47,601 nucleotides of DNA from a virus. Shown piece after piece: positions 3,465-39,255 of the stretch; within the stretch, counting starts at the first letter, position 1; each line of letters begins with the position of its first letter. The position numbers and the translations under genes were made by a program. The stretch covers positions 1 through 47,601 of the IMG/VR virus record IMGVR_UViG_3300046373_000116; one strand, given 5' to 3'. The notes beneath the pieces are model-generated. The model ran no database searches, was not told the DNA's origin, and worked only from the letters and a program-made list of their open reading frames with translations.

Positions 3465-3896
3465 TTAGTCGGTGATAGCGTCTAGCCATTCAACACCGTC
3501 GTAAACGAACGGCCACTCCTGCTCAACTATCGCGCCGTGTTCGAATTTGATGATGTCGATTTTCGTAAACTGTACGCCCTTTAAGCGGACGCGTTCAAAA
3601 CCGTATGCTCCCGGGTCAGCCAACTTCAGAATCAATTCGCTAACGAAAGCACCCTTACTGTTATCGAGAATCTGCGATACCTTACGCGCTAACTCCGACG
3701 TGACTTTATATCCCGAAATGCTTCCGGTAAGGTCGACTGTGCCGGCTTTATTGCCGCTGACGCGGGAGCCTGCGCGTTTAATCTTTTCATACGAGATATC
3801 GGCCATTGCTTCGGCGGTATGGAAATTAGATAACCATTCGCCGTCAGACCAAATTTCACCAAACTCGCCATTAATCGTACGTGTGGAATCTAGCAT
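3465..3896 (-). CDS. Tail tube protein (XkdM-like)
   Basis: This 143-residue protein follows AAGGAGGCGGACTATAA. Its length and sequence (TINGEFGEIWSDGEWLSNF, EIKRAGSRVSGNKAGTVDL-like segment, then KLADPGAYGFERVRLKGVQF) match the XkdM/YqbM core-tube family of contractile tails. Tube proteins stack as hexameric rings inside the sheath and form the DNA channel. Its position directly after the sheath gene is the standard order. Confidence 0.9.
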   Translation of the reverse strand: MLDSTRTINGEFGEIWSDGEWLSNFHTAEAMADISYEKIKRAGSRVSGNKAGTVDLTGSISGYKVTSELARKVSQILDNSKGAFVSELILKLADPGAYGFERVRLKGVQFTKIDIIKFEHGAIVEQEWPFVYDGVEWLDAITD

Positions 3897-3911
3897 TTAT
3901 AGTCCGCCTCC

Positions 3912-4955
3912 TTATACGTTAATTGTGAAGAATATACGTTCCATCGAATCGACTTCAACGTAGCTAATTACGAGGTACACTTTGTCGCCGACTGACGCGT
4001 ATTGCGGATCTAGCGCCACTACAATACCCGATAGTACGTTCGAAGTTTGCAACGTTTCGAGATACAGTTTAACCGCGCTAATTAACGCAGCTTGTCCATC
4101 AGCGTTATTATCGATCTTGCCGATATAGGCGTCCGATGCCGTTTTAGTAACGTCTGTAGATACCGCCTGTCTAGCGCGAATAGCACGGATTTTCTTAACG
4201 GAAGTCGTCAGTCCTTGCTCGACTTTCACCTTTTCGCCGTCATTCGTTAACACTAGCGATCCTGCCGCTAACGCCGTAGTAATTTCCGCGTTAGTTAAGC
4301 GCTTCGTTACGTCAGTTACCGGTACAACCGCATACGTAATCGAACGGTTAATCGGAGTGCCTGCGATAAGTCCTGCGATATACGGCGCGTATTTACCAGA
4401 AGAGTAAGACGTCCCGTTGATAGTTACGCCCGTTACGAGATTTACCGCATAGTCGTCGAGTAAACGCGCCGAGCGTGCATTACCGGTTGCCGGCGTCTGA
4501 TCGTCCGCTGTCGCAACGCATCCGAATACTACCGTAAAATGCTTGCCGGCCGCCTTATTCGCCTTCATCCACGTAAGCGTTAAGTCTTGTTCCGCTAACG
4601 TTACCTCTCCGTCGAAAACGAAGACGTTAAAAGGACGCGTATCGAAAGCTAAGCGAGCCGCTGCGAAATCCGCTGTGACTGCGCCGACTGGTAGCGTCCA
4701 TACGAGAACCTCTTTTGCACCGCCTTGTAGCGCGAATTTAATCGAATCGATATTCGCTACTCCGAACAACGCTGCCGCGTCCGTTTCGTTACGCACCGTA
4801 TAGAACGTCGACGCCGCTGCTGTTCCGCCGACGAACGCTTTTAGTTGGATAGCGACTATTCCGCGCGCTCCGCCTTTAATCTGCGATGCTGCCGCGTTAG
4901 TAAAATTAATATATAAACCTGGTCGCGTTGGTAATGCGGATGGGTCCCATGCCAT
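3912..4955 (-). CDS. Tail sheath protein (XkdK-like)
   Basis: The 347-residue product starts at ATG after AAGGAGTGACGTAA. The N-terminus (RPGLYINFTNAAASQIKGGARGIVAIQLK) and C-terminus (VALDPQYASVGDKVYLVISYVEVDSMERIFFTINV) are those of the PBSX/Listeria A118-type sheath family. The length is shorter than T4-like sheaths, as is usual for this group. Sheath subunits form the contractile outer cylinder, so this gene is the main evidence for myovirus morphology. Confidence 0.94.
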   Translation of the reverse strand: MAWDPSALPTRPGLYINFTNAAASQIKGGARGIVAIQLKAFVGGTAAASTFYTVRNETDAAALFGVANIDSIKFALQGGAKEVLVWTLPVGAVTADFAAARLAFDTRPFNVFVFDGEVTLAEQDLTLTWMKANKAAGKHFTVVFGCVATADDQTPATGNARSARLLDDYAVNLVTGVTINGTSYSSGKYAPYIAGLIAGTPINRSITYAVVPVTDVTKRLTNAEITTALAAGSLVLTNDGEKVKVEQGLTTSVKKIRAIRARQAVSTDVTKTASDAYIGKIDNNADGQAALISAVKLYLETLQTSNVLSGIVVALDPQYASVGDKVYLVISYVEVDSMERIFFTINV

Positions 4956-4974
4956 TTACGTCACTCCTTCGTAT

Positions 4975-5418
4975 TTAAACGTTAATTTTCGCATTAACTT
5001 GCGCCATTTTCGCGTAAGCTTCCTGCGTTCTTGCCTGCCGTACCTCCGTAGAAACTACGAGTATTGCCGCGTATAAATCGTTGTCCGTCTTAAACGGCAT
5101 CGATACGGAGATTGCGCCCACGCGAATATAACGGAGCGATCCGTTTATCGGAATCACTCGCGTCTGTTCTAGCGCAGTAGTTAGCGTATCGAGTTTCGTT
5201 AACACGTCGAGCGCCGTATCGCCGTAATAGACGATTTGATACTCGCGATCGTTACGGAAATGGTACGCGGTTTCAGATTCGGAGGAGGACGATTGTAGAC
5301 GGATGACGAACGTATTCGCTGCCGGCTTTAGTGGCACCGTCTGTTTAACCGTAGTCGACGTAGTGAAGCGAGCCTTAACGAACGCTTCTACCGATACGAT
5401 GTCGTTAATTAACGTCAC
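4975..5418 (-). CDS. Probable tail terminator / neck protein
   Basis: This 147-residue protein starts at GTG, seven bases after GGGGG, just downstream of the gp10-like gene. It shows no strong motif, but its size, its place between the gp10-like protein and the sheath, and a segment like YQIVYYGDTALDVLTKLDTLTTAL resemble the tail terminator group of PBSX-like elements. Such proteins cap the tail tube for joining to the head. The functional call rests mostly on order. Confidence 0.6.
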   Translation of the reverse strand: MTLINDIVSVEAFVKARFTTSTTVKQTVPLKPAANTFVIRLQSSSSESETAYHFRNDREYQIVYYGDTALDVLTKLDTLTTALEQTRVIPINGSLRYIRVGAISVSMPFKTDNDLYAAILVVSTEVRQARTQEAYAKMAQVNAKINV

Positions 5419-5419
5419 G

Positions 5420-5884
5420 CTAAAACCCCCTACGCCGCATTTCGGCCCTTATTTCGTCTTCTATATCGCGTTTCCAACGTTCGGCGTTCTGCTCTAGCGG
5501 TTTATCGAGAAACTTCGGAATCGTTCCGGCCGTTGTCGGATTAGCGAAAGACTGCTTCGGAAATACGTCGTGAATGTACGTCGCATAGTCGAAGTTGCGT
5601 CCGCCGTTTCTCTCGACCGCCGTTACCGAAATCGCTCCGGTCATCTTACCGGTTTCCGCGTCAACTTCCGTATGAATACCGCGGCGGAGGGTGCCTTTAT
5701 CTAGCGGAGCTAAGTCCGCAGATAGGCGCTTCCATTCGTCCATGACGTCACCAAGTCCGTTGCGCGTTCCTTGTTCGGCCGCTTCCGTTAATCGCCGTCC
5801 GTATCCGCGGAAAAAACGTCCGATAAGATTCTGCGCAAACGAGCCTGGGCGCGCTGTATCGATTTCAATGCGATTACTCGCCAC
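5420..5884 (-). CDS. HK97 gp10-like head-tail joining protein (XkdI-like)
   Basis: The protein is 154 residues and starts at GTG 5884, eight bases after GGAGGTG. Features such as LRRGIHTEVDAETGKMTGAISVTA, the nearby Tyr/Asp-rich YATYIHDVFPKQSF and the C-terminal helix with basic RRRGF fit the gp10/minor-tail U-like group. It overlaps the previous gene by one base. It probably takes part in head-tail completion. Confidence 0.7.
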   Translation of the reverse strand: MASNRIEIDTARPGSFAQNLIGRFFRGYGRRLTEAAEQGTRNGLGDVMDEWKRLSADLAPLDKGTLRRGIHTEVDAETGKMTGAISVTAVERNGGRNFDYATYIHDVFPKQSFANPTTAGTIPKFLDKPLEQNAERWKRDIEDEIRAEMRRRGF

Positions 5885-21293: not shown

Positions 21294-22099
21294 TCCGCCA
21301 CCCCTTCCGTTTTATCTCCGAAAAATGCGTCCGCCCACGGTTCGACCTCCGCTACCTTTTCACGTAACAATTCCGCTAATTCCGCAATCTCCCACTGCGC
21401 TCCGTTGCCTTGTTTACGTTTCTCGTAGAAATCGAGCAGCGAGCGCAGATTAGCGGTCATAACGAGATTCGTCGTAGCTGCGTTCGGTAGTACGTAGCGC
21501 GCGTCTTCAGCGGGAACACCGGCGCGACGTAAGCGATCATATACCGCTTGGATATCGCGCATTGCTTCATCGAATATATCCGTTGCTGATACGTCAGTGA
21601 ATATAGACCGCGATCCTTCCGGAGCGTCCTCGTCGAAGCCCGTTAGGCGCCGCGTATCCGTAGTTTTTCCGTCCAGTGACGGAGGCGTTACGTAATCGAA
21701 TCCGCCGCTCTTATCCCCGCTGCCGAATTTAACGTAGCGCTGCGATTGAACGGAGAAGCTGAATCCGACGCGGTGGCGTGTTAGTTGCGCTAATAGTGAG
21801 CGCGATACACCTTCGATGGCGAACGTAAAGTTTAGCGATTCCAGCGTTGAGAGGTGCTTACTGCGGACGATGTGGCGGATTAAGCGGTCAGCTTCCGTAC
21901 CCTCACCGCCGTCTGACGCAGCCGAACCGAAATACTTCGCGCCTTCCGTAGCAACGATGGCGGACGGTTTCAGCGGCGAGTAGCACGTTCTGATCGCGGT
22001 TAATGCGACGGCGGCTCCGTCAGTAGCATCCGCGGTAAGAGCGTTAGCCGCGCTAAACTCCGCTGATAATTGCGTATGTGCGATTAATACCACGTTCAC
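21290..22099 (-). CDS. thyX: Flavin-dependent thymidylate synthase ThyX
   Basis: At 269 residues it carries the ThyX signature RHRVGFSFSVQSQRYV near residues 108-123, and SRSLLAQLT just before it. The loop is one residue longer than the RHR-x7-S textbook motif, as in some phage forms. ThyX makes dTMP from dUMP with FAD, NADPH and methylene-tetrahydrofolate. The GTG start follows GGAGGTGG by seven bases. It shares a base with the repeat-protein gene and overlaps the next small gene by 4 bases. Confidence 0.92.
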   Translation of the reverse strand: MNVVLIAHTQLSAEFSAANALTADATDGAAVALTAIRTCYSPLKPSAIVATEGAKYFGSAASDGGEGTEADRLIRHIVRSKHLSTLESLNFTFAIEGVSRSLLAQLTRHRVGFSFSVQSQRYVKFGSGDKSGGFDYVTPPSLDGKTTDTRRLTGFDEDAPEGSRSIFTDVSATDIFDEAMRDIQAVYDRLRRAGVPAEDARYVLPNAATTNLVMTANLRSLLDFYEKRKQGNGAQWEIAELAELLREKVAEVEPWADAFFGDKTEGVAE

Positions 22100-23316
22100 T
22101 AGGCGGCCACCTCCGTTAAGCGGGAGTCGTCGACAATTCGATACGTCTGCCTACGTAAAAATCCGATACTAACTGTAGGCGTCTCGGCATGTGCATCTGT
22201 CGTATCGGTCACTAACAGCCGCGGAAACATATCCGAATAGTAAACGATATCGCCCGCCTGTACTTTCGTCGGTTGCGGCGCGTTCGTGTAAACATCCGGA
22301 ACCGTTAATCCCAGCGCGCGGCGAACCGCAATTGCTTTTCCGATGTGAACGTTAAATACGTCATCGGCGGAACAGCGAGATTTGCCGCGACCACGAACGT
22401 TACGTTCCAGTGTTCCTGCGTATGCTAAGCGTAGAATTGCGACGACCGTACGCTTCTCGGAGTTAACGATAAACTCGACTTTATTGTGACCGGAATATCC
22501 GTCAATAACGAGAAAACCATCACCGTAATCTTCGAAACGATCCGCCACGTCCGCCTTCGCACGGTCGATAACGTCCTGGCGCGTAAGAGACGGAGCTGTC
22601 GGCGTTGCTCCGCTCGTTGTCCGCTTTAGTGCGTCCGCGAGTTTACGTGCGATCTCGCCGATTCCGTTTGGTGCAGTTACCGTTACTTTCGCGCCAATTT
22701 GCTGTTCGTGTCCGGCAACGTTCGCTTCTAACGAGGTGACGCGCTTATCCAACGCTACGTTCTGCGCCGCGAGTTTCGATACTAACGTAACGAGTTCGTC
22801 TGTCAACGATTTAGGAGTAGGCGCAGTTGATACGGAAGCGACCGGCTCTAGTACGACGTAAATACCGCCATCCATGCCGTATTCCCCGTTCGCGTAATTT
22901 ACATGTCCTGACGAGAATGTCTCCGCATCTTCATGTAACGTAAACGATTCGCCGACTGCGTACCACTTCGTAGATTTCGTAATTAAAACGCGCTCGCCCC
23001 TACGTACATTGCGCATAACCGTCTTATACCGCTGACCGTCAACTACAACGATACCCGTCGGCTCTAGTACGACGTACTCACGGAGAAAAGCAGTATTACT
23101 CTCGCCAACGTTATCCGTAAAATTGACCCTACCGGTAGCGTTGATTCCTTCGGTAATGAAAGTATCTCCGTTTGTATAATCCACGGCCATCGTCGCTGCT
23201 ACGATCATTATCCGCTCCCCGACCGCAGCCTTCCGCATAACTTGCCGATACTCGCGTTGTATTCCGTTCTCGTCCGCTAAAACTACGTTCTTTGACTCCG
23301 TCGTTACTCCGTTCAT
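22099..23316 (-). CDS. Multi-repeat beta-barrel protein A (405 residues)
   Basis: The N-terminal half has two copies of a unit of about 65-75 residues: YRQVMRKAAVGERIMIVAA... ending REYVVLEP, and YKTVMRNVRRGERVLITKS... ending IYVVLEP. A coiled coil follows at about 170-210, then a separate C-terminal region (VIDGYSGHNKVEFIVNSEKRTVVAI) and a terminal unit (VQAGDIVYYSDMFPRLLVTD). The units look like small SH3-like barrels. Two related proteins are at 23804 and 37414. The role is unknown; virion, DNA-binding and anti-host functions are all open. Confidence 0.75.
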   Translation of the reverse strand: MNGVTTESKNVVLADENGIQREYRQVMRKAAVGERIMIVAATMAVDYTNGDTFITEGINATGRVNFTDNVGESNTAFLREYVVLEPTGIVVVDGQRYKTVMRNVRRGERVLITKSTKWYAVGESFTLHEDAETFSSGHVNYANGEYGMDGGIYVVLEPVASVSTAPTPKSLTDELVTLVSKLAAQNVALDKRVTSLEANVAGHEQQIGAKVTVTAPNGIGEIARKLADALKRTTSGATPTAPSLTRQDVIDRAKADVADRFEDYGDGFLVIDGYSGHNKVEFIVNSEKRTVVAILRLAYAGTLERNVRGRGKSRCSADDVFNVHIGKAIAVRRALGLTVPDVYTNAPQPTKVQAGDIVYYSDMFPRLLVTDTTDAHAETPTVSIGFLRRQTYRIVDDSRLTEVAA

Positions 23317-23807
23317 TTAACATCGCTCCCTATTTTCGTTATTGTTACCGCTAATCGTTTTCGTCCGAATTTCTGCGCGTCACTCAATCGCGCTATATAA
23401 ACGTCGATCCTCCGGCCTTTTATCGCGCCGCCTCTATCCGTACACGTCCGCCGCCCGACGCCTTCTATCGTTAGTTGCGTACCGAACGGTAGAGAGTGCG
23501 GACAAGCTACGGTTACGCCGCTCTTAACGCGCGAACCTGACGCCGTGACTCCGTAAAGTGCGTCACCGCTGTGCTTGCCGGTCGATTCGTAACCGGCTGT
23601 ATATGCGGTAACTTCGTATAGGACGGCGCGTTTAGCGGGTGGCTTCGGTGGTGGCGGTGGGTTCTGCGCCTTCTGTAACGTTGGGAGAACGAATGTGTAC
23701 GGTGGTACGTAAGGCGGTGCGCTTACTGTCGACGGTGCGAACGCTAGTAACGCTAGCACCGCCACCAACACCGCCGCTAATACCGCTATTACGTTGCGTA
23801 ACGTCAA
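23313..23807 (-). CDS. Membrane-anchored 3D-domain cell-wall protein
   Basis: The 164-residue protein has an N-terminal hydrophobic segment (VIAVLAAVLVAVLALLAFA, residues 6-24), a Pro-rich linker (QNPPPPPKPPAKR) and a C-terminal 3D double-psi beta-barrel: VTAYTAGYES, GVTASGSRVKSGVTVAC, CTDRGGAIKGRRIDVY. The Asp residues of TDRGG and RIDVY match the 3D family of lytic-transglycosylase-like proteins such as YocH/YorM. It probably acts outside the membrane on peptidoglycan. The TTG start shares TTGA with the upstream stop. Confidence 0.85.
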   Translation of the reverse strand: MTLRNVIAVLAAVLVAVLALLAFAPSTVSAPPYVPPYTFVLPTLQKAQNPPPPPKPPAKRAVLYEVTAYTAGYESTGKHSGDALYGVTASGSRVKSGVTVACPHSLPFGTQLTIEGVGRRTCTDRGGAIKGRRIDVYIARLSDAQKFGRKRLAVTITKIGSDVK

Positions 23808-25159
23808 ACCGCTTTACCGTCCAGGCGGGATTCGGCGGTAGCGATAAGCGTTGTATTCGATTTATTGTAAACGGTGAAATTTCCGCTAAAATCGCGTATT
23901 CCTACGAGCAAACCGCCGTTGTCTTCGATATAGCCGACCGTCGAGCGTGCCTTGACGATGTCTCCTACGTGGAACTCGTCCACCTTACGTCCGAGCTTCG
24001 TCCATAGCGCGCTACGTAATGCTGCGTCAATCTCCGCTTGCGTGGCGCGTCTGACTTCGTGAATGTACGCAGCTCCGATTTCTACGCCATCTACGGTTGA
24101 TACGATGAATGGTGCGTCAATACCGTTAGTACCGTCGTCCTCCGTAATCTGCGTAACCTTACCGACACACCCTTTGATAAAACCCGTCGCGCCTTCGTTG
24201 ACGACCGCATATTCTCCGACTTTTAGGCGCGCAGGTTTCGTAGGCGGCGCAGATTCTAGCGGTTCGAGTACGACGTATTCGCGGTCAAGGATCGGTCTTG
24301 TAAACTCCGCTACCTTAACGTGAGGAGTACCATTGTCGGATACCGTTTCCTTAACGATAAACTCAGCGCCATTAGCGTATCTCCCTCCTGTCAATTCCGC
24401 AGCTACGATGCGAATACGTTCGCCTACGTTAGCTTTACGTTTAACTTCGCGATAGAGAGGCGCAGCGGCGGTAACGACTTCGTAAGCGCCGTGACTCGCG
24501 TATTTCATATCGCCATCTCCGCCATATGAATATCGGATGCGCTCGTCTGTACGCTCTATTACGGTGCCGACCGTTCCTTCAGGCGCTCCGTATTCATAAC
24601 GTGTGATGCGGATTTTATCGCCAACCACGGTGCGCTTCGGTAAGGCCGGTTCGATCGGTTCCAATACGGAGTAATTACCGTTGATAACGAAAGTATCGTC
24701 GCCGTCGTTATCGATAATATTCGGATCGCCGTCGCTGTTAATTCTGGTAACCGCGTATATGCGCCCGACCGTCTTCCACTTGTAGCGGGATTCCGTAACT
24801 ACGATGAAGCGGTCGCCATCGCGCACATTACGTCTCACTACGTTATAGGTAGTTCCTTCGTGAGTGATCGTGTTAGCGGTAGTTTCGGCGGAAATTGACG
24901 CGCGTTTGAATACCACGAACGTGTCCCCGATAGTATCGAAGTCATCTCCGTCGTCACCGTCGACATGCGCGTCACCGCAACTATCTACATCCGTTACGAC
25001 GTAATAACCACCATCCGTAATAACCGTGTAATCATCGTCTAGGCCGAACTCGTAGCGGATAATATCGCCCACTTCCGCCTTCTCCGTCGACTCAACGTAA
25101 CTCACACCGCCCACCGTAATACTCGAAACTACTACCGTTACTCCGTTTAACTTTGCCAT
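23804..25159 (-). CDS. Multi-repeat beta-barrel protein B (451 residues)
   Basis: Good SD (ACGGAGGTTTTCGCTA). It starts MAKLNGVTVVVSSI, almost the same as protein C at 37414. At least five or six barrel-like units follow, for example YNVVRRNVRDGDRFIVVTES, VVGDKIRITRYEYGAPEGTVG, YREVKRKANVGERIRIVAAE (ending REYVVLEP) and FHVGDIVKARSTVGYIEDNGG. Several acidic DGDD loops occur in the first 90 residues. No signal peptide or catalytic motif is visible. Confidence 0.75.
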   Translation of the reverse strand: MAKLNGVTVVVSSITVGGVSYVESTEKAEVGDIIRYEFGLDDDYTVITDGGYYVVTDVDSCGDAHVDGDDGDDFDTIGDTFVVFKRASISAETTANTITHEGTTYNVVRRNVRDGDRFIVVTESRYKWKTVGRIYAVTRINSDGDPNIIDNDGDDTFVINGNYSVLEPIEPALPKRTVVGDKIRITRYEYGAPEGTVGTVIERTDERIRYSYGGDGDMKYASHGAYEVVTAAAPLYREVKRKANVGERIRIVAAELTGGRYANGAEFIVKETVSDNGTPHVKVAEFTRPILDREYVVLEPLESAPPTKPARLKVGEYAVVNEGATGFIKGCVGKVTQITEDDGTNGIDAPFIVSTVDGVEIGAAYIHEVRRATQAEIDAALRSALWTKLGRKVDEFHVGDIVKARSTVGYIEDNGGLLVGIRDFSGNFTVYNKSNTTLIATAESRLDGKAV

Positions 25160-26835: not shown

Positions 26836-27846
26836 TTATAACTGTATATACACGCGAGAATCGATAATTGGGACATCCGTAGAAAAATTAGTTAGCGAGG
26901 CGCGCCATAAATCACGCGAGTCGACGATATAACCGTAAGCTGCATTGTCTGAACGTATCTGCGCAATCGAACGGCGGTTATCGTAGCACCAATTAACGAA
27001 CGTCGTGTACTCGGTTACGCTCATTCCGTTTAAATCCGCGAGACACGCTACGACATGGCGCAGACGTTTCCGAATACTAGCGCTTTTGGACTGCGCCCAT
27101 ACGAACGGATTGCGGTCGCTCTTCGCTATATTTAGATCAGCGCGGATAGGTACTAAGTTTCCGAAGTAACTTCCGCCGTGACCGGTATTTAAAGCTACGA
27201 AATGGTCCAGGTGGATCTTGTTGGTGCTTCCCGTTAAGCAACAGGCGTGTAGAAATGTTTCGTTTATAGCTACTAACTCAGACTCCGTTATAGTTGCTAT
27301 TAAATTTTTACCTATTGCCAAACGATTGTGTCGGACGGCTTTCTTTGCTTCCGGATTATTCCTCATCCATTTAGAGACGTAACCTGCCGCGCAGCTTTTA
27401 CAATTCCACGCCAATCCGTAAGGCATTCGTGGATGTCTACTGTATGATAACAGCGGTTTTGGTACGCGACATTCACCGCAAGTTTTATACACTTGCTCTA
27501 GCAATGGTCGGACGCCTTTTCGCAGGAAACACTCGAAGATTCCTCCGTATTTACTAACGATATATCTGCGGTAGCTGGCGTCCTTCTGGCTTAAATCTAA
27601 GCGGCCGCCATTCCACAGGGTTTCGATATCTCTGTCGATCGCATCTTCGTAATCTAAGAAATCAACCTCCGCAGAAGTTTCCGCTAGCCCTTCGTCGAAC
27701 GCGACGTACGTCTCTATTCCGCGTGATTTAATAATTCGGTTGACAACTTCGTGGTTTAAACGTAATATACGCGCGACTCTATTTCGCGTCATTCCCGCGT
27801 CCAGTAGTTCCTGAATCGATTCCGCTAATTGCACTTTGGTACGCAG
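26836..27846 (-). CDS. HNH homing endonuclease with N-terminal HTH, probable CTG start
   Basis: A resolvase-like HTH comes first (QELLDAGMTRNRVARILRLNHEVVNRIIKSRG), then a treble-clef zinc site (CGECRVPK and CKSCAAGY) and an HNH-type segment CCLTGSTNKIHLDHFVALNTGHGGSYFGNLVPI. The reading frame upstream runs into the nrdJ terminator and is not genic. After AAAGGAG, the only near in-frame start is CTG at 27846 (nine bases); GTG at 27834 is too far from the SD. The gene lies between nrdJ and phoH as a free-standing insertion. Confidence 0.82.
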   Translation of the reverse strand: MRTKVQLAESIQELLDAGMTRNRVARILRLNHEVVNRIIKSRGIETYVAFDEGLAETSAEVDFLDYEDAIDRDIETLWNGGRLDLSQKDASYRRYIVSKYGGIFECFLRKGVRPLLEQVYKTCGECRVPKPLLSYSRHPRMPYGLAWNCKSCAAGYVSKWMRNNPEAKKAVRHNRLAIGKNLIATITESELVAINETFLHACCLTGSTNKIHLDHFVALNTGHGGSYFGNLVPIRADLNIAKSDRNPFVWAQSKSASIRKRLRHVVACLADLNGMSVTEYTTFVNWCYDNRRSIAQIRSDNAAYGYIVDSRDLWRASLTNFSTDVPIIDSRVYIQL

Positions 27847-27862
27847 ATAGCATCGCTCCTTT

Positions 27863-27909
27863 AAAAATAAAAAACGGAGCCGCAACGTCATCCCACCGCC
27901 ACGACTCCG
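27863..27909 (-). terminator. Rho-independent terminator after ribonucleotide reductase
   Basis: Minus strand: CGGAGTCG, a 19-base loop, CGGCTCCG and TTTTTTATTTTT. The stem is 8 bp with one G-U pair. It begins 12 bases after the nrdJ stop and precedes the HNH gene. Confidence 0.9.
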
Positions 27910-27920
27910 CTCCACTTCCG

Positions 27921-30923: not shown

Positions 30924-31158
30924 TTAGCGGCACCTCCGAAAGTAAACGGCCGACGGATTCGCGAATTAACTGCTTCGCCAACTCGATACTTATTGCGGTT
31001 CTTAATTCGCCCGCGTCCGGCAAAGCGCGAACTACTGCACGTAAGCGTTCAACTTGATCCGTCGTTAGGAAATCCTCTAAGCGGACGCCTTCGTCCTTTA
31101 AAAACAATCCGTAGACAGCTAACGCTAATATATCGCGTTGTCTTTGATCGTCAGTCAT
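30901..31158 (-). CDS. Hypothetical helical protein, 85 residues
   Basis: Start ATG 31158 after AAGGAGTTGGGCGA; an earlier in-frame start has no SD. The product is helical and acidic (ILALAVYGLFLKDEGVRLEDFLTTDQVERL). It overlaps the resolvase start by 23 bases. Confidence 0.6.
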   Translation of the reverse strand: MTDDQRQRDILALAVYGLFLKDEGVRLEDFLTTDQVERLRAVVRALPDAGELRTAISIELAKQLIRESVGRLLSEVPLIDEETGD

Positions 31159-31904
31159 TCGCCCAACTCCTTTTCTCCTGCGTACCATGGTTCGTTATAA
31201 ACTGTAATGAAGAACTTAAAACTCTCCGCGTCTGCATCGTTATGGCGGATATTACGATGGTACTCTCTATGACAAGGCACGCATAACGTAGCGCCATTGT
31301 TAATATCCGTACGGCTTTCAGGAACCCTCGCGTATGACTCTAAATGATGAGCATTGACCTTACCGCCTTTACTACCGCAAGCGACACAAGTAAAACCGTC
31401 TCGCTCAAATACGCTCATACGCCATTTATCGTATCCAGGAATGGTTCTCTCTTTTATCCTGTCTTCGTCGGTTAAGTCGTCGCGCCAACTCGGATTATTC
31501 GGTCCTGTTAGTTTCTCCGATATCTTCCGACATTTGCAGTTACCGCAACGCTGACCGGCCTTAAACTTAGAGAACGCGATAGATGAGATGGTTCCGCAAT
31601 TGCACCGATATTCAAGCTTCTGTTTATTGTCCGAATACGCGGAGCTGAGTAAATCGCATCCTTGCTCCGAGAACATTATCCGTACGCTATCGATAGAATG
31701 CCGTAATTTACCCGAACCGCGTTCCCACCGACAGCCGCCGCATAGCTGGCCGGATCTAAACTTGTCATACGATATCTGCGCTGTCCTTCCGCAAGTACAT
31801 ATGAAAGCTAGCAGCTCCCTTACGTTATTTATCCGCTTAGACAACAACGTACATCCGCGCTCTGCAAATAGTAGCCGCGCCGTATCGATCGTTACTTTGC
31901 GCAA
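31155..31904 (-). CDS. HNH homing endonuclease with two N-terminal zinc-ribbon repeats
   Basis: The first 130 residues hold two copies of one unit: TARLLFAERGCTLLSKR...CTCGRTAQISYDKFRSGQLCGGC and SVRIMFSEQGCDLLSSA...CNCGTISSIAFSKFKAGQRCGNC. These zinc units presumably read DNA. The C-terminal HNH domain has CVACGSKGGKVNAHHLESYA, NNGATLCVPCHREYH. TTG start seven bases after GGAGG. It sits inside the replication operon with overlaps to both neighbours, which implies a precise insertion or long adaptation. Confidence 0.88.
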   Translation of the reverse strand: MRKVTIDTARLLFAERGCTLLSKRINNVRELLAFICTCGRTAQISYDKFRSGQLCGGCRWERGSGKLRHSIDSVRIMFSEQGCDLLSSAYSDNKQKLEYRCNCGTISSIAFSKFKAGQRCGNCKCRKISEKLTGPNNPSWRDDLTDEDRIKERTIPGYDKWRMSVFERDGFTCVACGSKGGKVNAHHLESYARVPESRTDINNGATLCVPCHREYHRNIRHNDADAESFKFFITVYNEPWYAGEKELGE

Positions 31905-33651: not shown

Positions 33652-34305
33652 TTAGTTCACCGCCCGAAACGGTGTGATTAGCGCGTCAATTCCGTTTGCT
33701 TCGTCCGATAGTGCAATCGGATTCAAAGCGCCGCTGAATTTAACGGTAACTACCGCCGATCCCGCGTCTTTAAATACGTTCATCGCGTCAAGTAAATAGC
33801 CGGAATTTAACGTAATCTTAAACGGCAACTCTCCGGAAGCAGTTCCGATATGCGCGCTGAACGATACGCCTTCGTTGCTATCCGTTACGCTTAACGTGAC
33901 TGCGCCGTCTTCCGCGAAAGTAATTACCGCTAAATGGCGATCCCTGTCCGTTTGGTGCGCGATGTCGTACGCTAATTTAACGCGATCAACCATGCGTTGG
34001 ATTTCGTTAACTTTCGTATTCTTTAGTAGAACGAAGTCTACCGTGAAATTCACCGGAAATATTTTCTCCGTTGGCGGATACGTACCGTCGATCGTTTCGC
34101 CCGTCTTAGCGTGAGACGTTAGCGGTTCGGCGTAATTATGCGCGTCTTTAATCCGAAGTAAGCGATGGCGGTCGCAGATAACGGCGCTCCCGTCCGCAGC
34201 GTAGTGGATACCTTCGAGGACCGGCGTTGCGCTTCCGGACTTTGCCGCGAATTTCTTAGCGTGCTTCGTAATTAATTCGGACTTCTTCGGCATTGATAAC
34301 GCCAT
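33652..34305 (-). CDS. Sliding-clamp-like (DnaN-type) protein
   Basis: The 217-residue product starts after AAAAGGGAGCGTGATTAA. The C-terminal 70 residues (GELPFKITLNSGYLLDAMNVFKDAGSAVVTVKFSG...NGIDALITPFRAVN) have the pattern of clamp domain 3, including the YL.DAM and final P.R segment. The N-terminal part has GIHYAADGSAVICDRHRLLRIK. It is shorter than bacterial DnaN (about 370), so it would be a two-domain clamp. It lies directly downstream of the polymerase fragments. Confidence 0.72.
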   Translation of the reverse strand: MALSMPKKSELITKHAKKFAAKSGSATPVLEGIHYAADGSAVICDRHRLLRIKDAHNYAEPLTSHAKTGETIDGTYPPTEKIFPVNFTVDFVLLKNTKVNEIQRMVDRVKLAYDIAHQTDRDRHLAVITFAEDGAVTLSVTDSNEGVSFSAHIGTASGELPFKITLNSGYLLDAMNVFKDAGSAVVTVKFSGALNPIALSDEANGIDALITPFRAVN

Positions 34306-34309
34306 TTAA

Positions 34310-35425
34310 TCACGCTCCCTTTTCGTTATTTAACGGACAACAATTAACGTAATCCCATTCGGACGGCTTTGTTTCGTCCATCCAGCGCCTTTCGATAACT
34401 ATATCGCTGACTAACGGAACACTTAACGTTGCTGTCTGCGTCATGATGTCGTTAACGAGCGCTACCGTCTCCGGAGTTAAGTCCGCGTTGGGTACGCTGA
34501 TTTTAATCTCATCGTGAATTGACGCGTTAAGCTCCCAGCCGCGTTCCTTACACGTACGAGCCGCGCGATTACCGATCATCTTCAATATATCTGCGCCGCT
34601 ACCCTGGATTACCGCGTTAAACGCCGCACGCTCCCAGTATCCGATCATGCCGCGTTTCTCCGCTAATACGTCGATTTCGTCCTGTACCGTAAGTAAGCGT
34701 TGGTTATCGCGGGCAGACGGCGCGGTCTTGTTCCGCAATTGCTTACGCTCCGTATATAAGCGGATTAACCGTTGCTCGTTCGCTGAAGCTGCGGCCGCTA
34801 CCGCTTTATAATCCGGAAACCGGCGCTTTCGTCCGTACAGCGTTTCGACGTAACCGTTAACGCGCATGAACTGGCGGATGTCGGCGACCATCGTTTTAAA
34901 CGACGGGAATGTACGGTCGAAGTTTTCGAAAAACATCGCGGCGACTTCGGCGGTAACGTTCATTTTCTTCGCGAAGGATGACGGCGACTGATCGTAGGCT
35001 ACCGCTAATACGCCGGTCTTCATCAGCGAGCGCGGCTTGAACGCAGTCGACGGTATATCACCGCCGTAGCCACCTTCGCCCGATTTCGGATCAAACCACG
35101 CTTTATCAACGCAGTAGCCTTCCGCGAGTCCGAATGTCATCATCGCCATCGTCGTATAAAGATCAACGCCGTCAACGAAAATCTGACGCATTGAGTTATC
35201 GCCATATACCGTATACATGATATGGGCAAAAACGCGCGGCTCAATTTGTCCGAGATCGGCGCCGACGAACGTAAAGCCAGCGCGCGGTACGAAACAATTA
35301 CGGACGCGGTTACCGGCGCCTTTTGACGGGAGGTTTTGAGCATTGAAGCCTCGCGGAACTTTGCGGTCGTCTGCGATAAGAGTACGGACGATATCGTGAT
35401 AATTAGCGTCAGTTATTGTCAGCAT
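34310..35425 (-). CDS. DNA polymerase family A, C-terminal palm and fingers fragment
   Basis: This 371-residue gene holds polymerase motifs after the TGR segment: GFNAQNLPSKG (residues 26-36), motif A VGADLGQIEPRVFAHI, motif B RSLMKTGVLAVAYDQSP and motif C ASIHDEIKISVP. It starts with ATG 35425 inside the end of the 72-residue gene; SD AGGA lies ten bases upstream. Alone it lacks exonuclease, thumb and the TGRYSSS motif, which are encoded upstream in another frame. It must work with the N-terminal fragment if active. Confidence 0.9.
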   Translation of the reverse strand: MLTITDANYHDIVRTLIADDRKVPRGFNAQNLPSKGAGNRVRNCFVPRAGFTFVGADLGQIEPRVFAHIMYTVYGDNSMRQIFVDGVDLYTTMAMMTFGLAEGYCVDKAWFDPKSGEGGYGGDIPSTAFKPRSLMKTGVLAVAYDQSPSSFAKKMNVTAEVAAMFFENFDRTFPSFKTMVADIRQFMRVNGYVETLYGRKRRFPDYKAVAAAASANEQRLIRLYTERKQLRNKTAPSARDNQRLLTVQDEIDVLAEKRGMIGYWERAAFNAVIQGSGADILKMIGNRAARTCKERGWELNASIHDEIKISVPNADLTPETVALVNDIMTQTATLSVPLVSDIVIERRWMDETKPSEWDYVNCCPLNNEKGA

Positions 35426-35627
35426 CTAAAATACGTCCTATATTTGCGTATATTTGGTAGAATGGAGTAGGGCCTAGTATTAAGACTCTCTTCCTCGATG
35501 CTTCCACGGATCTGTCTGCGTGGTTCGTAATACCCATCGCTATATTAATCGAACGTAACTCTGTTTCCGATAGTTCAAGCGTAAACACTCGCTCAACTTT
35601 AGGCGTAATCTCCGTAATTTTAGCCAT
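35409..35627 (-). CDS. 72-residue protein inserted between polymerase fragments
   Basis: Start ATG 35627, seven bases after GGAGGAA. The protein (ITEITPKVERVFTLELSETELRSINIAMG, PTPFYQIYANIGRILDADNN) looks like a normal folded small protein and not like the polymerase. It begins 5 bases after the stop of the N-terminal fragment and overlaps the C-terminal fragment by 17 bases. There are no HNH, GIY-YIG or intein motifs. Function unknown. Confidence 0.7.
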   Translation of the reverse strand: MAKITEITPKVERVFTLELSETELRSINIAMGITNHADRSVEASRKRVLILGPTPFYQIYANIGRILDADNN

Positions 35628-35631
35628 CCGC

Positions 35632-37401
35632 TCATTCCTCCGTTTCGAATTTGCGCAATATATCAATCGGTCTCCCCGAATACCCACTCGAACTATAGCG
35701 CCCTGTTGACGTTCCACCCGCCTTATACTCCGTGTGAATCCGCCCGTCCGCCTCCAAAGCCTCCGGTATCTTCGTCACATACGTATTCAGCAGCTTCTCG
35801 TACGCCGCAACGGTCGCCAACGGCTTCAGCGCGTCCTCCTCTTCGTAATATGCGTCCAGTACGTCAGCCGCCGTTGATCGCGTCTTGCCGCGTTTAAATT
35901 GCGCTGTACGGTCGCGAACGCCGAGGTGATCGTAGATGAGATACGCGAGGTGATTTCCGTTAGTGATCGAAAACTCCGCTATTTCTACCGGCGCGTTATC
36001 TTCGGTCGCTGCCGCTAGTGGATTCGCCAGTAACTCCGCGAGCTTAGCGGTCGCTTCCGTATAACGTTTTAGCGCGGTCTTACCGGCCGCCTCACACTCC
36101 GTAATAATGGCGCGGTGCTTAGCGACGCTCTCCGTATACCGCGCAATCCTAGCGCTCTGCTTACTGCACCAATCCGCGATTTTCCCCGCGTTAATCGTCC
36201 GATCCATCTTCCGTACAAACTCCGCGTCGATTCCGTAGGATAAAACTACGTCAGCCTTCGCTTTATCGAGTAGCGGCGTAAACTCCGCTTCCAACGCCCG
36301 CAAGCCGTCCGTATCAATTTCGAAGCCACAGCGCCCCATGAATACGTCCGTTTCCGGTAGCTTCGAATCTATCTCCGCGTAACATTCGAGTAAGCGTCCT
36401 GGCGCGTTTTTCATCGCCGCGTACTGCCACTCGAATAGTCGCCATCCGTAGTAAACGTCGTTGATCGCATAAATTCCGACGATCTCCGTGTTGAATGGCG
36501 CTGGACTCCGCTTACCGAACATATCCTCGAACGTGTAGACTGCGCCATTGATACCGAAGCTCGGTCCGTATTTCGCAATCAGCGGTTTAAGTCCGTACGA
36601 CGCTTCGTGTTCGTTCATTAGGCGCATCGCGTCCAACGTATCCCAAACGCAGCCGCCGATTTCGTAGCCGTCCTTTATCGCGACGTGTAAATCGTAACGC
36701 GCGCTTCCCATATGGAACGTTTTACCGTGATTCGGACGCGACAAGTACGGTGTAATGGCGGCGAGGACCGCTGACCGCGTGAGCTGCGGATCGCCGGATT
36801 TAAATGCGCTGTCGTCCGTTAGAAATTCGAAGCCGACGGTGTTTCTCATATCGACGTGACCGTACGCTAAGTAGTAACCTTCGCCTAATAGCGGTAGCCA
36901 AACGCTGAATCCGATCGATATGTCGATATACGTATCAATGCCGGTTCCCTCGAAATCGCCCGCCATCATTGTATCGACGCCTAGTATGCGAAAGCGGTCG
37001 GTCCATTCCGTAACCTGGCGTTGACACTCCGTTCGTAGGCGGTCGATGAACGCGGGCAATTCGGAGTCGCGCGTTAGTACGAAATAGTTCGGCGGTTTCG
37101 TTGCGATCACTTCCGCCATACGTGCGCTGCGGTTTTCCGTTTCACGTTCGAGTAAGATGCGGGCGCCTGCGTTAATGACGGTAGCTTTCGTAATCTTCGC
37201 GCCCTTTAATCCGTTGAGTTCTCCGCGATGAAACGCAGCGACCGCGGCTTCGTATTGCGTCCGTTCTTTCTCCGATAGCTTCAGCGTACCAATGCGCTGT
37301 AACGCTTCCTCCACCGTTTCAAGGGCGGAGGATTTGCGCTTAGCGGCTTCACGTAGCGGCGTTGAGTCGCGTTGATTGAGCGTAAGTTTAACGTTGAGAA
37401 T
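35632..37401 (-). CDS. DNA polymerase family A, N-terminal exonuclease and thumb fragment, probable AUU start
   Basis: The 589-residue protein carries a DEDD 3'-5' exonuclease: AGDFEGTGI (motif I), GSARYDLHVAIKDG (II) and YAINDVYYG (III), at about residues 145-325. The thumb follows, and it ends at TSTGRYSSSGYSGRPIDILRKFETEE. In intact enzymes the QNLP segment follows soon after TGR, so the protein is cut within the active-site region. Upstream of GTG 37314 the frame stays open to ATT 37401, eight bases after AGGAGG; GTG has no close standard SD. The ATT start is preferred. Confidence 0.88.
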   Translation of the reverse strand: MLNVKLTLNQRDSTPLREAAKRKSSALETVEEALQRIGTLKLSEKERTQYEAAVAAFHRGELNGLKGAKITKATVINAGARILLERETENRSARMAEVIATKPPNYFVLTRDSELPAFIDRLRTECQRQVTEWTDRFRILGVDTMMAGDFEGTGIDTYIDISIGFSVWLPLLGEGYYLAYGHVDMRNTVGFEFLTDDSAFKSGDPQLTRSAVLAAITPYLSRPNHGKTFHMGSARYDLHVAIKDGYEIGGCVWDTLDAMRLMNEHEASYGLKPLIAKYGPSFGINGAVYTFEDMFGKRSPAPFNTEIVGIYAINDVYYGWRLFEWQYAAMKNAPGRLLECYAEIDSKLPETDVFMGRCGFEIDTDGLRALEAEFTPLLDKAKADVVLSYGIDAEFVRKMDRTINAGKIADWCSKQSARIARYTESVAKHRAIITECEAAGKTALKRYTEATAKLAELLANPLAAATEDNAPVEIAEFSITNGNHLAYLIYDHLGVRDRTAQFKRGKTRSTAADVLDAYYEEEDALKPLATVAAYEKLLNTYVTKIPEALEADGRIHTEYKAGGTSTGRYSSSGYSGRPIDILRKFETEE

Positions 37402-37413
37402 AAGTACCGCCTC

Positions 37414-39255
37414 CTACGCTGAAGCTGTAAATACGGATTCGACCGGGGTAACGAGCTCGCTGACTACGCGCCAGTCTCCGTCAATAGCCGTTGAAATGGT
37501 TATACCGTCATACATCGCAGTGTAATAACTTCCGTTAGTTACGGGCGCGCTGCAATTACGAACGACTCGAACGATATCGCCCGCCTTGATTTCGCCAACT
37601 TTGCGTCCAATCGCCGCCCATTTAGCGGTTTCAGCGGCGGCTTTAATGTCGACTTCCGTTGCTAACGTAACCTCCGATAGTAATCCGTACCAACGGCGAT
37701 GTTTCGGGAAATCTACGCGGATATCTCCGTTGCTAGCAAGTAGCGTTATGACTCCGATATCACCGTTCTCAACTCTTCCGAAACCGCGTCTCGGAGCCTT
37801 ACCGTCAGCGATCGTTAATCTCACGGTGTCGCCGACTTTGATAGCGGGCGCTTTCGGCTTAGTTGCGGCGTCGATTTCCGCTTGTGTCGCGGCGACAACG
37901 TTGTCTTTGTTCTTTCGACCGCGGATTGGATTGTCGCCTAAATCGCTGATACCGTAACCAAGCGAATCTACATCCGTGAGTTTAACGATATCGCCGATGT
38001 TAACGTGTGGATTCGGACCGCCGATAACCTTCGCATAGTCTCCGACCGCTAAGCGCGCGGGCTTCGGCTTTTCGGGAGCTGGCGCTGATGTAACGGACGT
38101 TAGTGGCTCGAGTACCGTAAAGTCCGAGAAATGCGCCATCCACCAATCGGTTCCGTCAAGGTACGACGCCCGTATATCCTTCCCTGATACCGTATCCACC
38201 CTTACGATTTCACCGTTAGCGAAGTCATGGCTTGTCGTATTACCGATAATTATAGCTAGATCGCCCTCAACCGCTTTACGCATTACCTTACGATACGCCT
38301 TACCATCATGTACGACCGCGCCATCAAATGGCGTTAGCACAACGGTGTAATCGTCACGCAATGTATCTCCATCGGTAGTTACCAGTAATCCGAAGGCACC
38401 TATACGCTGGATCGTATGAACGGTACCTATACGGTGACTTACGGTGCATGAACCGTCTTTTACGACTAATACCATATCACCTACGTTAGCAGGACGCTTA
38501 TGCTTCGTATAAACGGTCGATCCGACGGTGTGATACACGGGCGATATCGGCGTTTGTGTTGGCGTAACTAACTCGATTTGCTGTTCTCCGGACCAACCGC
38601 CATTAGTCGTCCTCCATGCATTGCCGTGCCCACGACTGTCTAGCGAAGGATCGCGCTGCGCTAGTGTATACGTTTGACCGGTAGCTTTGCTTTTTACGAC
38701 GTCGCCCGCTTGGTACGTGTGTGATAGACGAGGCGGTTGCGGTGCGGAAACTGGCGCGGATTGCGGTTCGAGTACGACGTAGCTCTCATAGGCGCAATCG
38801 ATGAAACCGTCTGTATTACCGCGGAAAGTTACGTCGATTGAATCGTCCAAAAACTCACCGCTTTTCGTGCAAGTCGCCACAATTCCGCTACCGTACGATG
38901 ACTTCGTAATTAATACAGTATCACCTACCGCAGCCTTACGCTTAACTTCGGTATATGTCGGTGAGACCGGCGCTACCGCTGAAGATAGCGGTTTGTATAC
39001 GGACCAGCCCTTACCTTTCGCAAGCTCCGCCCAACGAAAGTCTCCGTCATTGTCGACGATTGACAGTATGCCAGGATTACCGTACTCCGCGCCATCTACG
39101 ATTTCGAAATATGATCCGCTCGGTGCGCCCACGTACCCACCTTTCGTAATCTTCACGATATCGCCGTCCGCCGCCTTCCCCGTACTCGCCGCATATTGTA
39201 CGCCGTCTAACGCGATTACCTCACTTAATACCGTAACTCCGTTTAATTTCGCCAT
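37414..39255 (-). CDS. Multi-repeat beta-barrel protein C (613 residues)
   Basis: SD ATAGGAGGCACGTAATAG. About eight barrel-like units are seen. Examples are YTEVKRKAAVGDTVLITKSS (ending YVVLEP), LSHTYQAGDVVKSKATGQTYTL, YTKHKRPANVGDMVLVVKDG, YRKVMRKAVEGDLAIIIGNT (ending FTVLEPL), LAVGDYAKVIGGPNPHVNIGD and EIKAGDIVRVVRNCSAP. Linkers are Pro/Ala-rich. The first 15 residues match protein B. It is the longest member of the family, placed just before the polymerase genes. Function unknown. Confidence 0.75.
   Translation of the reverse strand: MAKLNGVTVLSEVIALDGVQYAASTGKAADGDIVKITKGGYVGAPSGSYFEIVDGAEYGNPGILSIVDNDGDFRWAELAKGKGWSVYKPLSSAVAPVSPTYTEVKRKAAVGDTVLITKSSYGSGIVATCTKSGEFLDDSIDVTFRGNTDGFIDCAYESYVVLEPQSAPVSAPQPPRLSHTYQAGDVVKSKATGQTYTLAQRDPSLDSRGHGNAWRTTNGGWSGEQQIELVTPTQTPISPVYHTVGSTVYTKHKRPANVGDMVLVVKDGSCTVSHRIGTVHTIQRIGAFGLLVTTDGDTLRDDYTVVLTPFDGAVVHDGKAYRKVMRKAVEGDLAIIIGNTTSHDFANGEIVRVDTVSGKDIRASYLDGTDWWMAHFSDFTVLEPLTSVTSAPAPEKPKPARLAVGDYAKVIGGPNPHVNIGDIVKLTDVDSLGYGISDLGDNPIRGRKNKDNVVAATQAEIDAATKPKAPAIKVGDTVRLTIADGKAPRRGFGRVENGDIGVITLLASNGDIRVDFPKHRRWYGLLSEVTLATEVDIKAAAETAKWAAIGRKVGEIKAGDIVRVVRNCSAPVTNGSYYTAMYDGITISTAIDGDWRVVSELVTPVESVFTASA

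What the first reader, a model, noticed from the sequence alone, without database searches (positions are those of the whole stretch)
34310..37401. Family-A DNA polymerase split inside the active site with a foreign frame inserted
Fragment 1 ends just after TGRYSSS; fragment 2 begins 25 residues before QNLP and motif A. A 72-codon gene with its own SD lies between them. The three frames are all different, so one base error cannot restore a single gene. Both halves keep their catalytic residues and the order is tight (5-base gap, 17-base overlap), suggesting co-translation and assembly of a split enzyme. Split family-B polymerases are known in some T4-like phages; a cut between TGR and QNLP with an inserted small gene is unusual.
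Basis: partly seen in the sequence, partly recalled or inferred. Interest (0 to 1): 0.8.

Follow-up and report, generated by a model that had tools for sequence, protein, structure and literature searches.

The report
Split phage polymerase with gene slot
A large group of phages of Paenibacillus, Brevibacillus and related bacteria makes its DNA-copying enzyme as two separate proteins cut at one fixed point next to the active site, and the cut has become a slot that holds a different small gene, or none, in almost every phage.

Summary
On the minus strand a family-A DNA polymerase is encoded in two genes (37401-35632 and 35425-34310), cut between TGRYSSS (Taq 579) and QNLP (Taq 580-585), with a 72-codon gene between them (35627-35409). 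It is not an assembly error, intron, intein or frameshift. The cut is in the same place in every relative found: about 46 distinct loci, including cultured Paenibacillus larvae phages (Halcyonevirus) and prophages of Paenibacillus, Brevibacillus and Neobacillus. The split has one origin. Its closest unsplit relatives carry a lengthened loop at exactly this spot. Both new ends grew conserved extensions, and all exonuclease and polymerase catalytic residues are kept, so I infer an obligate two-chain replicase. The small gene is not part of it: the slot is empty (genes overlap by 1-14 nt) or holds genes of at least 22 unrelated families. HNH homing endonucleases occupy it in three distant lineages, which suggests how the gene broke. 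Nearest known kinds: split phage genes such as Aeh1 nrdA, T4 topoisomerase, 44RR/25 gene 43, and the separately cut polymerase of OM43 phages. A further oddity: about half the clade starts fragment 1 with ATT, ATC, ATA, ACG or CTG (here ATT).

The parts
35632..37401 (-). Polymerase fragment 1 (589 aa from an ATT start): N-terminal region, 3'-5' exonuclease (D149/E151, D237, D315), thumb, palm strands up to TGRYSSS, then new 17-residue tail GYSGRPIDILRKFETEE
   Evidence: phrog_12241 2e-179; invariant columns
37399..37401 (-). Proposed ATT start codon of fragment 1, 8 nt after AGGAGG
   Evidence: coding test
35635..35685 (-). Conserved C-terminal extension of fragment 1 (GYSGRPIDILRKFETEE), absent from ordinary unsplit polymerases; its last codons carry the SD GGAGG of the next gene
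35409..35627 (-). Slot gene: 72-aa orphan protein, no significant relatives; not part of the polymerase
34310..35425 (-). Polymerase fragment 2 (371 aa): new N-terminal helix, QNLP, motif A (D57), O-helix (R132, K136, L140, Y144), motif C HDE (D305, E306)
   Evidence: (phrog_10285 3.3e-87)
35342..35425 (-). Conserved N-terminal extension of fragment 2 (MLTITDANYHDIVRTLIADDRKVPRGFN), predicted helix at residues 6-18

Best explanation
The window encodes a two-chain family-A replicase. Fragment 1 brings the proofreading exonuclease, thumb and the TGR strand of the palm; fragment 2 brings the rest of the palm and the fingers with all polymerase catalytic residues. They associate non-covalently, helped by extra ends that both chains acquired at the cut. 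The gene broke once, in the common ancestor of this phage clade, inside a loop between TGR and QNLP that was already lengthened, most likely through insertion of an HNH homing endonuclease gene. The cut then stayed, and the junction became a tolerated slot in which small genes are gained, lost and swapped; the 72-codon gene is this phage's current occupant. Shown: the split, its single origin, its fixed position, conserved ends and catalytic residues, the variable slot, and HNH genes in the slot of three lineages. Inferred: assembly, activity, docking role of the ends, and the endonuclease as the original cause.
For: Split in all 49 loci of the first survey (IMG/VR, GTDB genomes, GenBank phages and the window; fragment 2 at least 49% identical) and in three deeper ones, L090, L096, L100. 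Tree: split clade is one side of a branch (100/100; SH-aLRT 100). Nearest unsplit sisters L102, L103, L105, L106 are 45-48% identical to fragment 2 in single 805-858 aa frames and carry TGRYSSSEYVSAKHSKTIGSDGKGIAKGTNLQNIPSKG or similar at the cut. Ordinary unsplit relatives have only about 3 residues there. Exonuclease residues D149, E151, D237, D315 and polymerase D57, R132, K136, Y144, D305, E306 are invariant. Fragment 2 is predicted to fold alone (pLDDT 88.9) onto Taq 577-832 (Z about 23). The last 35 or so residues of fragment 1, the palm strands, are disordered when predicted alone (pLDDT under 50). Slot: -14 to 2300 nt, 34 proteins in 22 families; 12 state changes on the tree; sisters L011/L012 with 91%/86% identical flanks hold unrelated genes. 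HNH in L031 and L045 and, frameshifted, in the deep-branching L096.
Against: No experiment shows assembly or activity. No tool here could model the two chains together. The HNH genes could be later arrivals in an already split gene, as the T4 review considers for phage 25 gene 43. The order of events (loop lengthening, then split) rests on one sister group. In this window the two halves are not directly coupled in translation.
Confidence: 0.87

Rival explanations
1. A self-splicing intron (or a spliced mRNA) restores one polymerase; the small ORF is intron-borne.
For: Group I introns in phage polymerase genes are well known, and the OM43 phage authors considered this for a similar case.
Against: No Rfam match at gathering or relaxed threshold; the junction RNA folds no better than shuffles (z +0.96); about 14 relatives have genes that overlap by 1-14 nt, leaving no room for an intron; the sequence at the cut is extra protein, conserved at residue level.
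Confidence: 0.03
2. Programmed frameshifting or ribosome bypassing joins the halves into one polypeptide.
For: In slot-empty relatives the two frames overlap.
Against: The frame relation differs between relatives (L013/L017 versus L014); many carry one or more complete genes, up to 2.3 kb, between the halves; fragment 2 has its own start codon in all.
Confidence: 0.03
3. The polymerase is a decayed gene and the phage uses the host enzyme.
For: One relative (L025) has an in-frame stop in fragment 1.
Against: Invariant catalytic residues and 66% mean column identity over a deep clade in both fragments; the genes sit in a full replication module with primase, DnaB helicase and a clamp-like gene.
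Confidence: 0.03
4. The two chains are not one enzyme: fragment 2 acts alone as polymerase and fragment 1 is a separate exonuclease.
For: Fragment 2 is predicted to fold alone.
Against: Fragment 1 keeps thumb and the TGR palm strand, which has no use without fragment 2, and that part is predicted disordered on its own; the pair is always adjacent apart from the slot.
Confidence: 0.06
5. Trans-splicing split intein.
For: Split inteins break phage polymerase genes elsewhere (MIJ3).
Against: Only 17 and about 25 extra residues at the ends, with no intein domain hit.
Confidence: 0.01

Closest known systems
Halcyonevirus phages (Tripp, Halcyone, Scottie, Heath, Unity, Ash, Ley, C7Cdelta)
   Same: The same enzyme with the same cut; fragment identities 66-68%. 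GenBank annotates two 'DNA polymerase' genes flanking a hypothetical gene.
   Different: Slot gene is an unrelated 105-110 aa family (phrog_4867). The 2018 comparative paper lists the two products without remarking on a split in the passages found.
OM43 phages MEP401/MEP402 (Zobellviridae)
   Same: Family-A polymerase in two ORFs (exonuclease plus N-terminal part; C-terminal part) around a small unknown ORF.
   Different: Cut lies about 20 residues further on, between QN and motif A, without added ends; polymerase only distantly related, so probably an independent event.
Genes-in-pieces nrdA of Aeromonas phage Aeh1 (mobE) and T4 topoisomerase genes 39/60 (mobA)
   Same: One phage enzyme gene split at a critical place, with an HNH homing endonuclease gene in the gap; the Aeh1 enzyme still works as assembled pieces (PMC2988022).
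   Different: Different enzymes; here most slots hold no endonuclease and the gap content turns over.
Split family-B gene 43 of Aeromonas phages 44RR and 25
   Same: Phage replicative polymerase made as two co-purifying, active chains; a seg endonuclease gene in the gap of phage 25.
   Different: Family B, unrelated cut site.
Klenow/Taq/Bst DNA polymerase I
   Same: Fold and catalytic residues.
   Different: One chain; here two chains with the cut at Taq 579/580 and Leu at the position of E. coli Phe762.

Membership tests
Family-A DNA polymerase with 3'-5' exonuclease | Palm/fingers motifs A, B, C with catalytic Asp, Arg, Lys, Tyr, Asp | tested here: met
   D57, R132, K136, Y144, D305, E306 invariant in 37 sequences; Pfam PF00476 2.7e-41
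Family-A DNA polymerase with 3'-5' exonuclease | Exonuclease DxE, Asp and YxxxD residues | tested here: met
   D149, E151, D237, Y311/D315 invariant in 36 sequences; the PF01612 hit itself is sub-threshold (0.003)
Family-A DNA polymerase with 3'-5' exonuclease | Polymerase activity | not testable with these tools
   needs purified proteins
Genes-in-pieces created by a free-standing homing endonuclease | Contiguous gene in close relatives, split here | tested here: met
   Unsplit sisters L102, L103, L105, L106
Genes-in-pieces created by a free-standing homing endonuclease | Homing endonuclease gene in the gap | tested here: inconclusive
   HNH genes in the gap of L031, L045 and, frameshifted, L096, but not in this window or most relatives
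Genes-in-pieces created by a free-standing homing endonuclease | Pieces assemble into active enzyme | not testable with these tools
   inferred only
Group I intron-interrupted polymerase | Catalytic intron RNA between exons | tested here: not met
   no Rfam match, no stable fold, no room in slot-empty relatives
Split intein | Intein halves at the cut ends | tested here: not met
   extensions of 17 and about 25 residues with no intein match

The most novel reading that the evidence does not exclude
The clade has turned its replicase gene into a regulated two-subunit operon: fragment 1 is started at near-cognate codons (ATT, ATC, ATA, ACG, CTG in about half the phages), which keeps it scarce or tied to initiation-factor levels, while the junction serves as a permissive cargo slot expressed from the Shine-Dalgarno site written into the last codons of fragment 1. 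Replicase supply and accessory-gene expression would then be linked by selection rather than by accident.
Probability: 0.3. Interest if true: 0.75.

Novelty: new variant of a known kind. Interest (0 to 1): 0.56.

Why it matters
A replicative family-A polymerase cut beside its active site, stable across a deep phage clade, gives a natural series (short loop, long loop, split, split with cargo) for how an enzyme becomes a two-subunit complex. It also gives a split point for PolA-type enzymes that evolution has tested, shows that a broken essential gene can become a landing slot for accessory genes, and adds an unusual case of near-cognate start codons on a phage replication gene.

Tried and rejected
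Intron: Rfam at both thresholds and folding of the junction RNA gave nothing. Promoter or terminator inside the junction: one weak promoter-like match on the other strand, as expected by chance. Identity of the 72-aa protein: no significant Pfam or PHROG match and no phage tblastn match; a weak resemblance to the slot protein of L018 (E 0.024 in a set of 34) is not significant. Conserved role of the middle gene in the enzyme: rejected, since it is absent or replaced in relatives. Paper searches for a published description of this split found only table entries for Halcyonevirus and the separate OM43 case; one search found none, and searches gave no relevant further case among the titles and abstracts listed.

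Full report
What is in the sequence. On the minus strand of the window three ORFs follow one another: polymerase fragment 1 (37401-35632), a 72-codon ORF (35627-35409) and polymerase fragment 2 (35425-34310). The frames are all different, the gap is 4 nt and the overlap 17 nt. Both pieces hit Pfam DNA_pol_A in complementary parts of the profile and two PHROG families that match just these halves, phrog_12241 and phrog_10285. A profile of fragment 1 ends at Taq residue 579 and a profile of fragment 2 begins at Taq 578-580, so nothing of the enzyme is missing at the cut.

It is not an artefact. The GenBank records of the Paenibacillus larvae phages Tripp, Halcyone and Scottie show the same split with a hypothetical gene in the gap. 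Scans of IMG/VR and of GTDB genomes gave many more, with prophages or phage-like contigs in Paenibacillus, Brevibacillus and Neobacillus. In the first survey 49 of 49 loci of the clade are split at the same place; a further scan added the deeper branches L090, L096 and L100, also split. After removing near-copies there are about 46 distinct cases. The split clade is monophyletic (bootstrap/SH-aLRT 100/100; SH-aLRT 100 with a wider outgroup).

How the cut arose. Ordinary unsplit relatives (Bacillus phage 268TH002, phage Dp-1, VD13) have about three residues between TGR-x-S-[S/A] and LQ; Sporosarcina phage Lietuvens has a somewhat longer loop. The closest unsplit sisters of the clade (L102, L103, L105, L106; 45-48% identical to fragment 2, one frame of 805-858 aa) have a loop of up to about 20 residues at exactly this place and share GTNLQNIPSKG with the split forms. 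The split forms have a conserved tail on fragment 1 (GY-GRPIDIL-EF) and a conserved head on fragment 2 (ITD-NYH-IVRKLI-D-RKV). This suggests that the loop was first lengthened, then cut, and that both new ends were kept under selection, probably as docking parts (inference). In the AlphaFold2 model fragment 2 folds by itself (mean pLDDT 88.9, head helix at residues 6-18) and aligns with Taq 577-832 and Bst (Z about 23). In the model of fragment 1 (mean pLDDT 70.6) residues 100-556 resemble Klenow 324-657 (Z about 12, large rmsd), while the last palm strands including TGR are below pLDDT 50. That is what one expects if they need fragment 2.

The slot. The distance from the stop of fragment 1 to the start of fragment 2 runs from -14 to +2300 nt. 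In twelve loci of the first survey the genes overlap by 4-14 nt; L090 (1 nt) and L100 are similar. Two have 5 nt. About 25 have one small gene. Larger inserts hold an HNH endonuclease (L031), an N6/N4 DNA methyltransferase (L032), a Mom-type protein plus a repeat protein (L038), KOW/SH3-like repeat proteins (L040, L042-L044), and an RNA ligase with an HNH-AP2 gene (L045). Thirty-four slot proteins fall into 22 families. On the tree the junction classes need 12 changes. L011 and L012 have 91% and 86% identical flanking DNA but unrelated slot genes; L017 has no slot gene while its close sister L055 has one. In most loci the last codons of fragment 1 spell GGAGG or close to it, which can serve as the Shine-Dalgarno site of whatever comes next: the slot gene if present, otherwise fragment 2. 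The 72-codon gene of the window has no detectable relatives.

Why an HNH endonuclease is the likeliest cause. Related HNH genes lie in the slot of L031, L045 and L096, three distant branches (36% and 45% identity). In L096, on the deepest split branch, the gene is frameshifted, as expected of an endonuclease decaying after fixation. The T4 literature gives direct precedent: mobE in nrdA of Aeh1 and mobA in the T4 topoisomerase gene, with functional enzymes from pieces, and the split gene 43 of Aeromonas phages 44RR and 25, whose chains co-purify and polymerise (PMC2988022). The same review notes that an endonuclease may invade an already split gene, so cause and consequence cannot be told apart here.

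Alternatives. No intron is detectable, and slot-empty relatives leave no room for one. Frameshifting is excluded as a general mechanism because frame relations differ and whole genes intervene. Intein halves are absent. Decay is unlikely given invariant catalytic residues: D149, E151, D237, D315 in the exonuclease and D57, R132, K136, Y144, D305, E306 in the polymerase (their roles are assigned from established knowledge of Pol I).

Translation. Short overlaps are the hallmark of coupled genes and are enriched among subunits of heteromeric complexes, and coupling is almost lost at about 20 nt (PMC10666635). Slot-empty phages therefore probably couple the two halves directly. Phages like this one cannot, except through the slot gene.

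A second oddity. The start of fragment 1 is often not ATG, GTG or TTG. Conserved protein (KLTLN and onwards) continues upstream of the first canonical start to a position 7-9 nt after a Shine-Dalgarno site, and the codon there is ACG, ATC, ATA, CTG or ATT in about 20 of 39 distinct phages; relatives have ATG, GTG or TTG in the same place. In the 19 non-canonical cases tested this region differs between pairs at 0.60 of third codon positions against 0.38 and 0.29 at first and second positions, as coding sequence does. My choice of start favoured near-cognate codons, and a few cases (L031, L052) are ambiguous, but in-frame stops just upstream leave few other candidates. For fragment 2 a canonical start could be placed in every locus (only canonical codons were searched). 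GenBank entries for Tripp and Halcyone start fragment 1 at the first ATG, probably too late.

Known versus new. The Halcyone-cluster paper lists 'DNA polymerase I with exonuclease domain' and 'DNA polymerase family A' as separate products without comment in the passages found (PMC6070908). The OM43 phages MEP401/402 have a similar but independent split, some 20 residues further on (PMC10580990). I found no description of the clade-wide fixed split, the exchangeable slot, the long-loop sister group or the near-cognate starts; the paper library covers open-licence PMC articles only. I call this a new variant of a known kind (split phage genes).

Noticed in passing
37399-37401 (-) and the same place in related loci: Fragment 1 starts at ATT here and at ACG, ATC, ATA or CTG in about 20 of 39 distinct relatives; ATG, GTG or TTG in the rest. 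Near-cognate starts on a replicase gene are unusual.
   Followed up: partly
33652-34305 (-): Gene directly after fragment 2 resembles a sliding clamp (phrog_947 processivity factor 4.4e-12; DNA_pol3_beta_3 just under cut-off).
   Followed up: no
37414-39255, 23804-25159 and 22099-23316 (-): Three large proteins in the window share repeat sequence of KOW/SH3-like type (seen by eye in the translations); similar repeat proteins occupy the polymerase slot in L038, L040, L042-L044.
   Followed up: partly
L025 4571-4576: Fragment 1 carries an in-frame stop in this relative (ORFs 3881-4573 and 4574-5677), either a dead copy or a sequence error.
   Followed up: no
34310-35425 (-), residue L140: Leu at the position of E. 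coli Pol I Phe762, invariant in the clade; in the literature Leu762 goes with slower, more accurate polymerases and temperate phages (PMC6302109).
   Followed up: partly
31155-31904 and 26836-27915 (-): Two HNH or endonuclease VII-like genes elsewhere in the window, one next to the ribonucleotide reductase gene.
   Followed up: no
L024 6111-8221 (MEP401): Independent split of a family-A polymerase between QN and motif A with a 77-codon ORF in the gap; a second natural split point a few residues away.
   Followed up: partly
L001-L003: GenBank annotation of Tripp and Halcyone starts polymerase fragment 1 about 43 residues too late because the likely start is ACG.
   Followed up: yes
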